DNA from: Vulcanimicrobiota bacterium
Lineage (GTDB): Bacteria > Vulcanimicrobiota > Vulcanimicrobiia > Vulcanimicrobiales > Vulcanimicrobiaceae
Length of the DNA: 64,000 nucleotides
Reading direction: 5' to 3'
Assembly: GCA_027452165.1 (NCBI GenBank)
Contig: DAIDGX010000003.1
Span: forward strand, 62,001 to 126,000
Position numbers and translations under genes: made by a program. Positions 46,717-53,013 of this stretch are shown piece by piece; the stretch's first letter is position 1; each line of letters begins with the position of its first letter. The notes under the pieces are model-generated. The model had not been told where the DNA came from and did not search any database. It worked only from the letters and a program-made list of their open reading frames with translations.

Positions 46717-48029
46717 GGGTGTACATTCGAGCCACTGATGGCCTCGTAAGAATGACGAGGCCAACGGGCGAACCGAGTGAGTGTCAAAGCTTACACGGAG
46801 GCCCGATGGCGACCAATATCGTACCCGAATCCACCCTTCTCGACAACCTCCTCGACGACACCCCCGTCGACGATCTTCACCAGCTCATGGCGCTCGTGCT
46901 CGATCGGATCATGCAGCATGACATCGCCAACCGTACGGGCGCGGCGCATTACGAACGTTCGGCGAGCCGGACGAACCATCGCAACGGTACGCGGCCACGG
47001 CGCTTCGACACCCGCCTGGGCACGTTTGATCTCCAGGTTCCCCGACTTCGCGAAGGTGGTTACATGCCGCCGTTTCTCGCCCACCGTTCGCGCAGCGAGA
47101 AGGCGTTGACGGCGCTCGTGCTCCAAGCGATCATCAGCGGCGTCTCGACGCGCAAGATCGAGAAACTCGCCGCTCAACTTGGCGTTGCGTCACTGTCGAA
47201 ATCGCAAGCCAGCGAGCTTTGCGAGGAGCTCGACGCGCGTGTGGCGGAGTTCCGCGGCCGCCGCATGAGCGGCAGGTATCCCTATCTGATGCTCGATGCG
47301 CTCTACGAAAAGGTGCGCATAGATGGCAAGGTCGTCAGCCAGGCCGTCGTCGTCGCCTACGGCCTCAACGTGGACGGGAAGCGAGAGCTGCTCGGCGTTG
47401 ACGTCGTGGAGACGGAGAGCTACCAGAGCTGGTCGACGTTCTTGAAGAGCTTGAACGATCGTGGCCTCCGCGGCGTGAAGTTGGTCGTCAGCGACGCGCA
47501 CGGCGGGCTGGTCAAAGCGATCGCCGCGGTAATGACCGGCGTACCTTGGCAACGTTGCAAAGTCCACTTCATGCGCAATGTCCTGGCGCACGTTCCAAGC
47601 CGCCTCAAAGAAGAGGTTGCCGGCGCGCTCAAATCCGTCTTCGTTCAGACGACGGCAGAGCTTGCCACGGGAATCGTTCGGTCAACCGTCGCGAAATACA
47701 AGAAGAGCTGTGCTCGCGCGATGCAGATCCTTGAGGATGGTGCTGAAGACGCACTTGCGTTCATGGCGTTTCCCGAGTCGCATCGACGCAAGATCGCATC
47801 GACGAATCCGGTCGAACACTTGAACCGCGAGATTCGTCGCCGAACGCGTAGCGTGGGCATCTTCCCAACGCGCGATTCCGCGCTCCGCTTGATCGGTATG
47901 ATTCTCCTGGAACAGACGGAGGACTGGCAGGCCGAAAAGGCATACATCAATCCCGAGTCGCTCGCCGCACTCTACGCGAGCGTGGACGACGACTCGTAAA
48001 TCACTATCTCACTCGGCGAATTTACACAC
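46717..48029 (+). mobile_element. Complete IS256-family insertion sequence
   Basis: About 1.31 kb. Terminal inverted repeats GGGTGTACATTCG (46717-46729) and the complement of CGAATTTACACAC (48017-48029) match at 11 of 13 bases. Immediately outside lie GTCCGCGGAC (46707-46716) and GTCCGTGGAC (48030-48039), which are near-palindromes and may be a target duplication with one change or an outward extension of the repeats. It carries one intact transposase gene and abuts the IS3 remnant on its left. Confidence 0.85.
46806..47999 (+). CDS. IS256-family transposase
   Basis: Protein of 397 aa, full family length. Mutator-type DDE enzyme: MLDALYEKVR (first Asp), VVSDAHGGLVKAI (second Asp), WQRCKVHFMRNVL (the C-x2-H motif) and NPVEHLNREIRRRT (catalytic Glu region). 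CGGAGG sits 4 nt before the ATG. No stop or frameshift is seen, so the element may still be mobile. Confidence 0.95.
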   Translation: MATNIVPESTLLDNLLDDTPVDDLHQLMALVLDRIMQHDIANRTGAAHYERSASRTNHRNGTRPRRFDTRLGTFDLQVPRLREGGYMPPFLAHRSRSEKALTALVLQAIISGVSTRKIEKLAAQLGVASLSKSQASELCEELDARVAEFRGRRMSGRYPYLMLDALYEKVRIDGKVVSQAVVVAYGLNVDGKRELLGVDVVETESYQSWSTFLKSLNDRGLRGVKLVVSDAHGGLVKAIAAVMTGVPWQRCKVHFMRNVLAHVPSRLKEEVAGALKSVFVQTTAELATGIVRSTVAKYKKSCARAMQILEDGAEDALAFMAFPESHRRKIASTNPVEHLNREIRRRTRSVGIFPTRDSALRLIGMILLEQTEDWQAEKAYINPESLAALYASVDDDS

Positions 48030-49318: not shown

Positions 49319-52300
49319 TCAATGAAAGTTTCTGGCATGGATACCATCGACGATGCCGTTGTCGTCAAAACTCCAGATGCGGCGAGCGAGGAGGTCGATT
49401 GCGCCTTGCTCCTTTTGCAGTTTGCCTTCGATGACGAGCGTATTTGCGGTACGAATGGTTCGGCGATCGCGTTCGTACACGTCGGGGCGTACGATCACGT
49501 TCACGAGTCCCGTCTCATCTTCGAGCGTGAGAAAAACGAAGCCCTTGGCGGTTCCCGGACGTTGGCGCGTGATGACCAAGCCGCCCACGCGGCAGATGAG
49601 ATGATTGGGCATCGCAGCTAAACGCGCGGCGGGAATCACACGCTGAGCATCGAGTAACGCTCGGAAATGCGCCATTGCTTGACCGCGCGGCGTTACGCCA
49701 GTTGCCCACAGATCGAAGGCCGTCATCTCTTTGGGCGTCAGTTCGGCGAAGGCAACATCGGGTTCTTCGACATCCATGAGGGCGCCGAGCTCGCCGCGTG
49801 CTTTGCGTTCATCGAGCGCGCGCAACGCCCACATCGCGTCGCGACGCGATCGATACCAGGGTACAAAGGCGCCGGCGGCTGCCAGATTCTCTAACGTCTC
49901 CTTCTCGAGGCGCGTACGGCGTGCAAAATCGAGCAGATCGACAAACGTGCCCTGCGCGATCGCGGACTCGAGCCGCTGCTGCTGGGCCTCGCCGAGGCCG
50001 CGCGCCAGATGAAATCCCAGTCGCAGTGCGCCATCGGGTTCGACGTTCGACCAATAGGCGCTTGCGTTCACCGCGATAGGTCGCACATCAACTCCATGCC
50101 GTTTTGCATCGTTCACCAGCACTTCGGTCGAGTAAAAACCCATCGGCTGCACGTTCAGAATCGCAGCCGCAAAAATTCCCGGATAATGACACTTCACGTA
50201 AGCCGACGCATAGGCAAGCAGTGCGAAGCTCGCCGCATGCGATTCGGGAAAGCCGTAATCGGCGAATCCTTCGAGCATGTGAAATAGTTGCTCGGCCGCC
50301 GTGCGGTCGATGCCGTTTCCCACCATGCCATCGATCAAGCGCGCGGAGATTTCGTGCATGCGTTCGCGCGAACGCTTGTGTCCCATCGCGCGCCGCAGCT
50401 TGTCGGCCTCTCCCGCCGAAAATCCGGCCGCTTCGATCGCAAGGCGCATGCCCTGTTCTTGAAAGAGCGGCACGCCGAGCGTTCGTTCGAGCACCGGCTT
50501 CAACTTCGGATGCGGATAGGTGACCGGCTCCAACCCCGCGCGCCGGCGCAAGAACGGATGGATCATCTGCCCTTGAATCGGCCCCGGGCGAATGATCGCC
50601 ACCTGCATCACGATGTCGTAAAAACAACGCGGCTGCATCCGCGGCAGCATCGATTGCTGCGCCCGCGACTCGATCTGGAAGACACCAATCGTGTCGGCCT
50701 TCGCGATCATCTCGTACGTTGCCGCATCATCCGGCGGAATCGTATGTAACGCCAAGCGCGGGGACGGACATACCGTGGCTGCGGGGGCTCTGAGCTCGGA
50801 GCGGAGCCAGGATGGCGGGAGCTCCGAGGCAGGCAGTAGCGTTTTCGCACGATGCGAAAACGCGGGCGTCCCCGCGGCCGCGGTATGTCCGTCCCCGCGC
50901 TCGACACACCGCGCATGAATGGCGAAGGCTTCACGCAAAAGCGAGAGCATTCCAAGCCCCAGCAGGTCGATCTTGATGAGGCCGAGTTCTTGCAGATCGT
51001 CCTTGTCGAATTGGATGATCGTACGATCGCGCATCGTTGCCCATTCGATCGGAGCGACGCGCACAAGCGGGTCACGCGTGATCACCATACCGCCGGAATG
51101 AATGCCCATGTGACGCGGAAACCCCTCGATGCGCACGCAGAAGCGATAAAGGAGCTGCGCAAGCTCACCGCTGATGAACGCCGGCTGCGACAATCCCGCT
51201 ACGACACCGGTCGTTTCACTGAGCGATCCTCGGGCATCGTACTCTTTGACGATGCGATCGACGTGAGCGAGGGTGAGCCCGAGGGCTTTACCGATGTCGC
51301 GTAGCGCCGAACGCGTGCGATAGGTGATCACCTCGGCAGCCATCGCGGCGTTGGTACGGCCGTACCGTTCGTACACGTACTGAATCACTTGCTCGCGATC
51401 TTGATGGGCGAAATCGATGTCGATATCGGGAATTTCTTGTCGCTCTTCCGACATGAAGCGTTCGAAGAGCAGGTTCATCCCGATCGGATCGACGGCAGTG
51501 ATGCCGAGCGCATAGCAGACGGCGGAGTTGGCGGCCGATCCGCGTCCTTGACAGAGCACGCCGAAACGGCAGGCAGCCTGCACGATGTCCCAAACGATGA
51601 GAAAGTAGCCGGCTAGATCCATCTTCGCGATGATGCCGAGCTCGTACTCGAGTTGACGCTCCACGGATGACGAAAGCGGCGCCCCGTAGCGTTCGGCCGC
51701 ACCGCGCAGGACGAGCTCGCGCAGGTAGGTCTGTCGCGTGGAGCCTGCTGGCACGGGGAAAAGCGGAAATTGGCCGGTCTGCCGCTCGAGGCGATAGCGA
51801 CAGCGTTCGGCGATACCGAGCGTCGCGTCGATAGCCTCGGGATAGGCGGCAAAGAGCGCGCGCATTGCGGCGGCGGATTTGAGGTGGTACTCGGCGTTCG
51901 GGCGCAGGAGATGCCGCGCCCGTGCCTCGTCGAGCGTCACCGTCTTGCGTACGCAGGTAAGCACATCGGCAAGCTGCGCATCGTCTTTCTGCGCATACAC
52001 CACGGCGTTGGTTGCAACGTACGAAACGTGCAGTTCGCGTGCGCGTTGCACGATCGCGTCGTTTAGCGCTGCATCTTCCGGCGTGAGGTGATGCTGAAGC
52101 TCCAGATAAAGACGCTCGCCGAAGTGCTCGCGCAGCGCCACAATACGTTCGCAATCATGCGTGCGCGCAAGCGCGATCAAGCCGCCGGTTCGCCCCTCGA
52201 AATCCTCGAGGCGCGCTTGCGCATCACCTTTCTTTCCACGCAATTGCGCGCACGATATCACCTCGCAGCAGTTTGCGTATCCATGCTCGTCTTCGACGAG

Positions 52301-52546
52301 CAACACCAAACGCGTACCGTCCTCGAACGTGAGTTCCGTGCCGATGATCGCAGCGATCCCCGCGCTGCGCGCCGCCGAAGCAAAGCGCACCGACCCATAG
52401 AGTCCATCACGGTCGGTGAGCGCGATGGCGGTAAGGCCGAGTTCCGCCGCTCGCTGCGCAAGCTCTTGCGGGTGCGATGCACCCGCAAGAAAGGTGAAGT
52501 TCGACCAGCAGTGCAGCTCGGCATAGCCCGCTAGCGGCGCAGCCAC
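49319..52546 (-). CDS. dnaE2: Error-prone DNA polymerase III alpha subunit (ImuC/DnaE2) with in-frame palindromic insertion
   Basis: Protein of about 1075 aa. PHP domain start YAELHCWSNFTFLAGASHP, polymerase palm with GRGSAANSAVCYALGI and PDIDIDFAHQDRE, FQIESRAQQSMLPRMQPRCF and IIRPGPIQGQMIHPFLRRR, and the C-terminal OB domain (GFVFLTLEDETGLVNVIV). It performs translesion synthesis with ImuB. Residues ~549-597 are absent from typical DnaE2 proteins and are encoded by a palindromic element at 50756-50900. Start: GTG 52546 gives a normal N-terminus; an upstream TTG (52603) is possible. It overlaps the GIY-YIG gene and lies last in the SOS operon. Confidence 0.95.
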   Translation of the reverse strand: MAAPLAGYAELHCWSNFTFLAGASHPQELAQRAAELGLTAIALTDRDGLYGSVRFASAARSAGIAAIIGTELTFEDGTRLVLLVEDEHGYANCCEVISCAQLRGKKGDAQARLEDFEGRTGGLIALARTHDCERIVALREHFGERLYLELQHHLTPEDAALNDAIVQRARELHVSYVATNAVVYAQKDDAQLADVLTCVRKTVTLDEARARHLLRPNAEYHLKSAAAMRALFAAYPEAIDATLGIAERCRYRLERQTGQFPLFPVPAGSTRQTYLRELVLRGAAERYGAPLSSSVERQLEYELGIIAKMDLAGYFLIVWDIVQAACRFGVLCQGRGSAANSAVCYALGITAVDPIGMNLLFERFMSEERQEIPDIDIDFAHQDREQVIQYVYERYGRTNAAMAAEVITYRTRSALRDIGKALGLTLAHVDRIVKEYDARGSLSETTGVVAGLSQPAFISGELAQLLYRFCVRIEGFPRHMGIHSGGMVITRDPLVRVAPIEWATMRDRTIIQFDKDDLQELGLIKIDLLGLGMLSLLREAFAIHARCVERGDGHTAAAGTPAFSHRAKTLLPASELPPSWLRSELRAPAATVCPSPRLALHTIPPDDAATYEMIAKADTIGVFQIESRAQQSMLPRMQPRCFYDIVMQVAIIRPGPIQGQMIHPFLRRRAGLEPVTYPHPKLKPVLERTLGVPLFQEQGMRLAIEAAGFSAGEADKLRRAMGHKRSRERMHEISARLIDGMVGNGIDRTAAEQLFHMLEGFADYGFPESHAASFALLAYASAYVKCHYPGIFAAAILNVQPMGFYSTEVLVNDAKRHGVDVRPIAVNASAYWSNVEPDGALRLGFHLARGLGEAQQQRLESAIAQGTFVDLLDFARRTRLEKETLENLAAAGAFVPWYRSRRDAMWALRALDERKARGELGALMDVEEPDVAFAELTPKEMTAFDLWATGVTPRGQAMAHFRALLDAQRVIPAARLAAMPNHLICRVGGLVITRQRPGTAKGFVFLTLEDETGLVNVIVRPDVYERDRRTIRTANTLVIEGKLQKEQGAIDLLARRIWSFDDNGIVDGIHARNFH
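50756..50900. repeat. 145-bp palindromic element inserted in frame in dnaE2
   Basis: Perfect 20-bp terminal inverted repeats, GCGCGGGGACGGACATACCG at 50756-50775 and its complement at 50881-50900, extend inward with a few mismatches to about 33 bp. Inside is a perfect 11-bp-stem hairpin at 50839-50863 (GCGTTTTCGCA, 3-nt loop) and a further partial inverted pair around GAGCTC. It is read through as about 49 codons without a stop. No second copy was noticed in this window. Confidence 0.88.
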
Positions 52547-53013
52547 GTGGAGAGCATCCGCAGGTCGAGGCGCGATACCAACTGCGGACAGTCGGGCGTA
52601 CAAATATGCAGGGCTCGCATCCGTTCGCGCATGCGCTCGCGAGCGGACGCGAACTCGGATTCGATCGCTTGGCTTGCGAGAAAGCGTTCATTCTCGATGC
52701 GCAGATGCGCAAAGCGTTGATGCAGTTCGCGCTCGACGGCCTGCTCGCCAACGAAGCATGTCCGCAAGCGCAGCGCATCCCCGTAGCGGAACGTGCGGCG
52801 CAATTCACGGATGCGCCGTACCGGATGCTCGGAATATCCGATTTTCCACGAACGCTCGTCCACCTCGAGCAGGTACACGAATCCATAGTTGTAACCTGCC
52901 AACTCTTCGAGCGGTGAGAGCAGGTGGTTGGTGCGCGTGATCTCGCCACTGCGCAGCCACGACGATGCGATGCGTTGGAATTTTTCACATGCGGCGCGGT
53001 CGATCTCAATCAT
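52531..53013 (-). CDS. GIY-YIG/T5orf172-like domain protein in the SOS operon
   Basis: Protein of 160 aa. The central NYGFVYLLEVDERSWKIGYSEHPVRRIREL (~45-75) matches T5orf172/MUG113 domains of the GIY-YIG nuclease superfamily; a charged helical C-terminal half follows (FLASQAIESEFASARERMRERM). GAGG lies 5 nt before the ATG. It overlaps the imuB stop by 8 bp and the dnaE2 start, so it is co-translated with the mutasome. Whether it cuts DNA is not clear: the GIY pair is replaced by GFVY and the catalytic Glu is uncertain. It is not a usual member of this cassette. Confidence 0.78.
   Translation of the reverse strand: MIEIDRAACEKFQRIASSWLRSGEITRTNHLLSPLEELAGYNYGFVYLLEVDERSWKIGYSEHPVRRIRELRRTFRYGDALRLRTCFVGEQAVERELHQRFAHLRIENERFLASQAIESEFASARERMRERMRALHICTPDCPQLVSRLDLRMLSTWLRR

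What the first reader, a model, noticed from the sequence alone, without database searches (positions are those of the whole stretch)
50756..50900. Palindromic element inserted in frame within dnaE2
A 145-bp block with perfect 20-bp terminal inverted repeats and an inner 11-bp-stem hairpin interrupts dnaE2 and adds about 49 residues (from roughly codon 549) between conserved polymerase blocks, with no stop. This resembles the Rickettsia palindromic elements, which also insert in coding frames, but I know of no such family in this kind of organism. The hairpin may be excised, tolerated, or affect translation of the last SOS gene.
Basis: partly seen in the sequence, partly recalled or inferred. 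Interest (0 to 1): 0.82.

Follow-up and report, generated by a model that had tools for sequence, protein, structure and literature searches.

The report
Dispersed hairpin repeat inside DNA-polymerase gene
A bacterium of the little-known phylum Eremiobacterota carries, in frame inside its error-prone DNA polymerase gene, one copy of an apparently uncatalogued family of folded DNA repeats that sit at the ends of genes in its relatives and whose fold resembles an RNA of unknown function called TwoAYGGAY.

Summary
The palindrome is real (window 50755-50901; arms 21 bp perfect, 32 nt at 94%) and folds as a three-way junction: a long terminal stem plus two hairpins, not one. It belongs to a dispersed family. 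A covariance model finds 5 copies in this genome and copies in 48 of 78 genomes of the phylum (up to 22 each). Copies share an ~90-nt core but have different terminal stems. Outside dnaE2 they lie just 3' of stop codons (77/90 within 60 nt), nearly always in one orientation. In dnaE2 the same site is occupied in two congeners with the core inverted; homologues without it have a short linker there. The inserted residues (574-613) are predicted disordered. Rickettsia palindromic elements are a good analogy, but in-frame palindromes in dnaE2 were already reported for REP repeats, and the REP transposase (RAYT) is absent here. The closest described structure is TwoAYGGAY RNA (RF01731): its model picks out only these elements, always on the same strand, but never above its cut-off. 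G-U asymmetry indicates that the GGA-loop strand is the constrained one, although it is antisense to its neighbours. How the element moves is unresolved.

The parts
49319..52603 (-). dnaE2 (imuC) host gene, 1094 aa, uninterrupted frame
50755..50901 (+). whole palindromic element (the GGA-loop strand is +, antisense to dnaE2)
   Evidence: covariance-model hit 50772-50884 +, 114 bits
50755..50786 (+). left arm of the terminal stem (21 bp perfect, 32 nt at 94%)
50790..50832 (+). hairpin H1, apical loop GGA at 50810-50812, G-A-rich internal loop
   Evidence: fold; GGA in this loop in 102 of 105 copies
50833..50839 (+). junction GCAGTAG (GNAG in the family)
50864..50871 (+). 3' end of the conserved core, GGGCGTCC
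50870..50901 (+). right arm of the terminal stem; read in the dnaE2 sense it codes RGDGH..., the part that resembles native linker

Best explanation
The segment is one copy of a dispersed, non-coding, non-autonomous palindromic repeat family of the Eremiobacterota. The family's ~90-nt core (two hairpins, usually with GGA loops) closes on a terminal stem to make a three-way junction. It normally settles just 3' of a gene's stop codon. In an ancestor of this genus one copy landed in the loop-like linker between the palm and finger domains of DnaE2. Because the element is GC-rich and its frame and length happened to fit, it was kept as extra translated, disordered residues; since then the core has flipped once between its two arms. 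Shown: family membership, site, open frame, disorder prediction, opposite orientation in congeners, positions at 3' ends, strand asymmetry. Inferred: that the insert is translated and close to neutral; that one insertion followed by a flip explains the three species; that copies spread by a process without fixed ends (copying or template switching helped by the hairpin) and not by a RAYT; that the GGA strand acts as an RNA or single-stranded DNA.
For: Further copies with the same core in the same genome. Covariation: 32 of 40 pairs changed on both sides, 90.9% of cells paired against 64.9% in shuffles. 48 of 78 genomes carry copies. 91 classified intergenic copies: 54 between unidirectional genes, 36 convergent, 1 divergent; 77 of 90 within 60 nt of a stop codon; in unidirectional sites 41 antisense and 3 sense, P = 1.6e-9 (ORFs by a simple codon model). 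Same dnaE2 site in two congeners, L067 and L084 (84% protein identity), core in the opposite orientation, inner arms 70% alike. Independent in-frame copies at the same linker (L032) and in a second linker (L064, L079). Residues 574-613 are the only internal stretch under pLDDT 50 in a model of mean 83. Intergenic cores are free of stops in 33-76% of copies per frame, so in-frame carriage is easy. Wobble pairs outside the model region: 103 on the GGA strand, 46 on the other, P = 3e-6. Y1 transposase (PF01797) absent from the high-copy f1/f2 genomes except G022, which has fragments.
Against: No empty dnaE2 allele within this genus was found, so the exact insertion ends, and whether the arms came with the core or from the target, are not settled. 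No expression or protein data exist for these metagenome-assembled genomes. The GGA strand, the constrained one, is antisense to both neighbours at most sites, which is hard to square with a function in the mRNA. Two separate insertions at one hot spot could replace insertion plus flip.
Confidence: 0.8

Rival explanations
1. The element is a working CsrA-type regulatory RNA: the GGA strand is transcribed, its two GGA hairpins bind CsrA, and the dispersed copies titrate CsrA or mark 3' regions, as proposed for TwoAYGGAY RNA. (This can be true together with the best explanation; it concerns function, not origin.)
For: GGA in the H1 loop in 102/105 and the H2 loop in 72/105 copies; the GGA strand shows the G-U tolerance; CsrA is present in this genome (93.8 bits) and co-occurs with the element in good genomes of the class (32 of 35 with the element have CsrA, 7 of 15 without it; P = 0.0012, not corrected for kinship; within family f1 alone P = 0.08). 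TwoAYGGAY model hits below cut-off: 13 of 13 places listed in two genome searches are these elements on the same strand. TwoAYGGAY is predicted to bind CsrA and has tandem GA pairs and a poorly conserved outer stem (PMC4333381).
Against: The GGA strand is antisense to the adjacent gene at most sites and no common promoter can lie in flanks that differ in every copy; the A-N-GGA spacing is incomplete in the commonest loop CAGGATG; W has lost GGA in H2; no RF01731 hit reaches the gathering score.
Confidence: 0.3
2. The core is a mobile unit that inserts into the tips of hairpins that already exist at gene ends; the locus-specific terminal stem is the target hairpin.
For: Flanks beyond the model stay complementary (0.88 paired against 0.52 shuffled in the first 10 nt). 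The empty site in G042 (94% identical flank) is a hairpin GGCCCG-CAAC-CGGGCC where G008 has AGGCCCGGTTG[element]CAACCGGGTCC. The empty nuoF-nuoG site in G000 is an imperfect palindrome matching the outer arms.
Against: Other empty sites show no hairpin that matches the arms. A palindromic 'empty' site can be an excision scar: G001 at L207/L211 has lost the core between direct repeats GGGCGTC. Arms partly travel with the core in some genera.
Confidence: 0.25
3. A GTAG/CGTC-type REP dimer mobilised by a RAYT transposase.
For: Position next to stop codons, between unidirectional and convergent genes, G-U pairs, insertion in dnaE2 (PMC3733652); GTAG or related GNAG before H2 and CGTC after it.
Against: RAYT (PF01797) not found in this genome, its genus, or the other high-copy genomes of families f1/f2 apart from fragments in G022; GTAG in only 28 of 108 copies, GCAG commoner; the two hairpins are nested in a common long stem.
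Confidence: 0.06
4. An ordinary hypervariable loop of DnaE2 that became palindromic by chance or slippage, unrelated to a repeat family.
For: The linker is variable in length and hosts other repeats in other species.
Against: Covariance-model hit at 114 bits and copies in non-coding DNA elsewhere in the genome.
Confidence: 0.02

Closest known systems
TwoAYGGAY RNA (Rfam RF01731, clan CL00106)
   Same: Three-way junction of two GGA-loop hairpins on an outer stem that is poorly conserved; AG before and CGG..CGTC after the second hairpin (alignment against the core); same strand in 13 of 13 sub-threshold hits.
   Different: Best score 32.6 bits against a gathering cut-off of 43; GC-rich; up to 22 dispersed copies per genome with different outer stems; sits antisense at gene 3' ends and sometimes inside genes; described before from human gut, gamma-Proteobacteria and Clostridiales (PMC2864571).
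REP repeats of the GTAG/CGTC superfamilies
   Same: Short palindromes just downstream of stop codons, between unidirectional or convergent genes, with in-frame copies in DNA repair genes including dnaE2 (PMC3733652).
   Different: No RAYT; GTAG not conserved; two hairpins enclosed by a long locus-specific stem.
Rickettsia palindromic elements (RPE)
   Same: Palindromic elements also carried in frame inside genes (RPE-1, -4, -6 as cited in PMC3733652).
   Different: Sequence relationship not tested here; this family is overwhelmingly intergenic.
MITEs
   Same: Small, non-autonomous, dispersed, with inverted ends.
   Different: No inverted ends shared between copies, no fixed unit ends seen, no transposase identified.

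Membership tests
TwoAYGGAY RNA (RF01731) | Score at or above the Rfam gathering cut-off (43 bits) | tested here: not met
   Best 32.6 bits in L257; L029 31.5; none over cut-off in 76 genomes
TwoAYGGAY RNA (RF01731) | Two terminal loops AYGGAY | tested here: inconclusive
   GGA in both loops in 69 of 105, full AYGGAY in both in 4 of 105
TwoAYGGAY RNA (RF01731) | Two hairpins on one outer stem, tandem G-A pairs in one hairpin | tested here: met
   Three-way junction with covariation; GRA/GRGA internal loop in H1 allows G-A pairs (pairing itself inferred); tandem GA stated in PMC4333381
TwoAYGGAY RNA (RF01731) | Binding to CsrA (predicted function) | not testable with these tools
   Only co-occurrence with csrA could be measured
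REP (GTAG) with RAYT | Conserved GTAG next to the hairpin | tested here: not met
   GTAG in 28 of 108, GCAG in 50
REP (GTAG) with RAYT | Y1 tyrosine transposase in the genome | tested here: not met
   No PF01797 in G000-G002 or the other high-copy genomes of f1/f2; G022 has fragments
REP (GTAG) with RAYT | Location just 3' of genes | tested here: met
   77 of 90 within 60 nt of a stop codon
Rickettsia palindromic element | Palindrome carried in frame inside protein genes | tested here: met
   dnaE2 of W, L067, L084, L032, L064, L079
Rickettsia palindromic element | Sequence similarity to an RPE family | not tested
   No RPE sequence was compared
MITE | Terminal inverted repeats common to all copies, and target duplication | tested here: not met
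   Arms of non-orthologous copies are near random below 85% core identity, 0.49-0.52 against 0.47; no constant target duplication at empty sites

The most novel reading that the evidence does not exclude
TwoAYGGAY-type structures are not fixed RNA genes but the cores of mobile elements whose functional form is a folded single strand (RNA or DNA); they move without a dedicated transposase into or beside hairpins at gene 3' ends, acquire a new locus-specific stem each time, can flip in place, and occasionally decorate proteins such as DnaE2.
Probability: 0.2. Interest if true: 0.85.

Novelty: new variant of a known kind. Interest (0 to 1): 0.6.

Why it matters
It gives an uncultured phylum what seems to be its first described dispersed palindromic family, with hundreds of copies to compare. 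It links an RNA of unknown function (TwoAYGGAY) to a dispersed repeat and suggests why its outer stem is 'not well conserved'. The orientation bias against genes, the locus-specific stems and the in-place inversion pose a concrete question about how such palindromes spread without a recognisable transposase. It also adds a phylum to the puzzle of why palindromic repeats are tolerated in error-prone polymerase genes.

Tried and rejected
RAYT/REP mobilisation: rejected on absence of PF01797. CsrA/TwoAYGGAY as a plain cis-regulatory element of the host mRNA: weakened by the antisense position. Rfam hits to MIR1858 and mir-H1: judged spurious, generic long GC-rich hairpins. Target inverted duplication as a general rule: fits the dnaE2 5' arm and some gene-end arms, but empty sites gave mixed answers. 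A family of naked hairpins with apex GGGGCGTCCCC as the target: five matches in two of three genomes, one of the four whose sequence I could read is a palindrome, best taken as an excision scar. MAG assembly palindromes at contig ends (L131, L182, L185) were left out of the statistics.

Full report
OBSERVATION. The palindrome is present at 50755-50901. The arms are 32 nt at 94% complementarity with the outer 21 bp perfect, and the strand folds with z about -12. The host frame is dnaE2, minus strand, 1094 aa, with no stop. The organism is a Candidatus Eremiobacterota (the closest DnaE2 relatives are nearly all labelled so).

A FAMILY. BLAST of the segment in its own genome gave further places that share the inner part but not the ends. 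Reading these showed the same core with different terminal stems. A structural alignment of ten copies from several species gave 40 pairs, of which 32 show changes on both sides, with 90.9% of cells paired against 64.9% in shuffles and 31-46% when slid. The structure was predicted from the same alignment, which favours it somewhat. A covariance model built on it found 5 copies in this genome and copies in 48 of 78 genomes of the phylum, in three families of one class and none outside it, up to 22 per genome. Filters were applied, so these counts are lower bounds.

WHERE THE COPIES LIE. I fetched about 110 copies with flanks. Excluding the dnaE2 copies, all that could be classified lay between genes by a simple codon-model gene caller (an earlier, laxer run called one copy, L128, inside a short frame). 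54 lie between unidirectional, 36 between convergent and 1 between divergent genes; 77 of 90 lie within 60 nt of a stop codon. In unidirectional sites the GGA-loop strand is antisense to the gene whose end it abuts in 41 of 44. The distribution next to gene ends is like that described for REPs in PMC3733652.

THE STEM. Beyond the modelled region the two flanks remain complementary for about 20 more nucleotides (0.88, 0.74, 0.50 paired in successive 10-nt blocks, against 0.52, 0.47, 0.44 when partners are shuffled). Between non-orthologous copies the stems are near random until cores are more than 85% alike. Between orthologues, too, the stems usually diverge faster than the core (L150/L138 core 0.96, arm 0.70; L170/L165 core 0.97, arm 0.59). 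In genus g7 an inner stem is shared by most copies while the outer 10-25 bp are locus-specific. In G045 one side of several copies carries the end of another repeat at a nearly constant distance, so the copied unit has no fixed ends there. Sites without the element in related species were compared. One is a hairpin into whose loop the element fits, with the loop complement repeated on the other side (L181 against L219). One is an imperfect palindrome (nuoF-nuoG). Others are not. One is best read as an excision scar between GGGCGTC direct repeats (L207/L211). I therefore leave open whether the stem is the target, is made on insertion, or grows afterwards by template switching.

STRAND. Among mismatches in the terminal stem outside the model, 103 are G-T on the GGA strand and 46 are A-C (G-U on the other strand), P = 3e-6; 48 copies lean one way, 19 the other. 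The stem alignment scored both kinds equally. Copies are partly related by descent and were found with a model of the GGA strand, so the P value is optimistic. C-to-T bias on the coding strand of the upstream gene would give the opposite sign (inference). So the GGA strand behaves as the molecule whose fold matters, as RNA or as single-stranded DNA. GGA is in the H1 loop in 102 of 105 and in the H2 loop in 72 of 105.

DNAE2. In W the residues between ...REAFAIHARCVE and LALHTIPP are RGDGHTAAAG...CPSPR; relatives have 4-17 residues here. L067 and L084, from the two congeners G001 and G002, have an element at the same site with homologous arms and the core in the opposite orientation relative to the gene. 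The frame is open in both orientations. L032 has an independent copy in the same linker, L064 and L079 in a second linker (about residues 466-477). Other species carry unrelated repeats in the first linker. An AlphaFold model (mean pLDDT 83) gives residues 574-613 below 50, the only such internal stretch, between a helix ending at 569 and one starting at 627; the place corresponds to the unaligned gap between residues 570 and 582 of the DNA polymerase III alpha chain 5fku_A. The simplest reading is a tolerated disordered loop. Nothing suggests removal from the message.

COMPARISON. TwoAYGGAY RNA came up in a permissive Rfam scan (L029, 31.5 bits, E = 0.42). Two genome searches with RF01731 listed 13 distinct places with E up to 0.67; all 13 are covariance-model copies of this family on the same strand. 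Part of that agreement may come from any long GC-rich nested palindrome fitting the model, but that would not explain 13 of 13 on the same strand. The alignment shares AG before and CGG..CGTC after H2. None reaches the cut-off of 43 bits, so I do not file it as a member; I call it a likely distant relative. TwoAYGGAY is predicted to bind CsrA, has tandem GA pairs and a poorly conserved outer stem (PMC4333381). CsrA is present here and co-occurs with the element in the class (P = 0.0012 uncorrected, 0.08 within the main family). Against a direct regulatory role stands the antisense position. REPs in dnaE2 are already published (PMC3733652), so the in-frame insertion itself is not a new kind of event; the RAYT that is thought to move GTAG REPs is absent. 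A literature search for Eremiobacterota repeat elements returned nothing, within open-access papers only.

VERDICT. A real, recurrent, structured repeat family, apparently new to its phylum, with one in-frame copy in dnaE2; a new variant of palindromic repeats with a TwoAYGGAY-like fold. The mode of spread and the role of the GGA strand are open.

Noticed in passing
L042, L058, L070, L076, L020 (DnaE2 linker): The same DnaE2 linker carries unrelated in-frame palindromic or tandem repeats in other species, e.g. many CHPERSE/HPEHSE units in L042 (TCATCCTGAGCG-type repeat).
   Followed up: partly
L084:5398-5652 and L067:632-994: A second DnaE2 indel site (about residues 466-477) holds tandem repeats in these congeners and three-way-junction elements in L064 and L079.
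   Followed up: partly
L207 / L211:1501-1511 (G001:C58): Core-less palindrome with apex GGGGCGTCCCC, apparently a deletion between GGGCGTC direct repeats at the core ends.
   Followed up: yes
L149 (G002), about 1141-1440: A complete element followed by a second, core-less version of the same palindrome.
   Followed up: no
L165 (G050) and L170 (G051): Same convergent intergenic site, opposite core orientation and unrelated arms although flanks are 90-92% identical.
   Followed up: partly
L077, L078: Records titled Rhodospirillales encode an Eremiobacterota-type DnaE2 (about 68% identity); probably mislabelled or misbinned.
   Followed up: no
G023 (L257, L261-L264): Genome with 21 diverged copies, some of which score best with the TwoAYGGAY model; may bridge the two groups.
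   Followed up: partly
L174, L175 (G008) and L183 (G042): The G042 element has one arm of each of two different G008 elements: recombination between elements or a chimeric contig.
   Followed up: no
window 46719-47999: A 426-aa frame resembling a mutator/IS256-type transposase near dnaE2 (by eye only).
   Followed up: no
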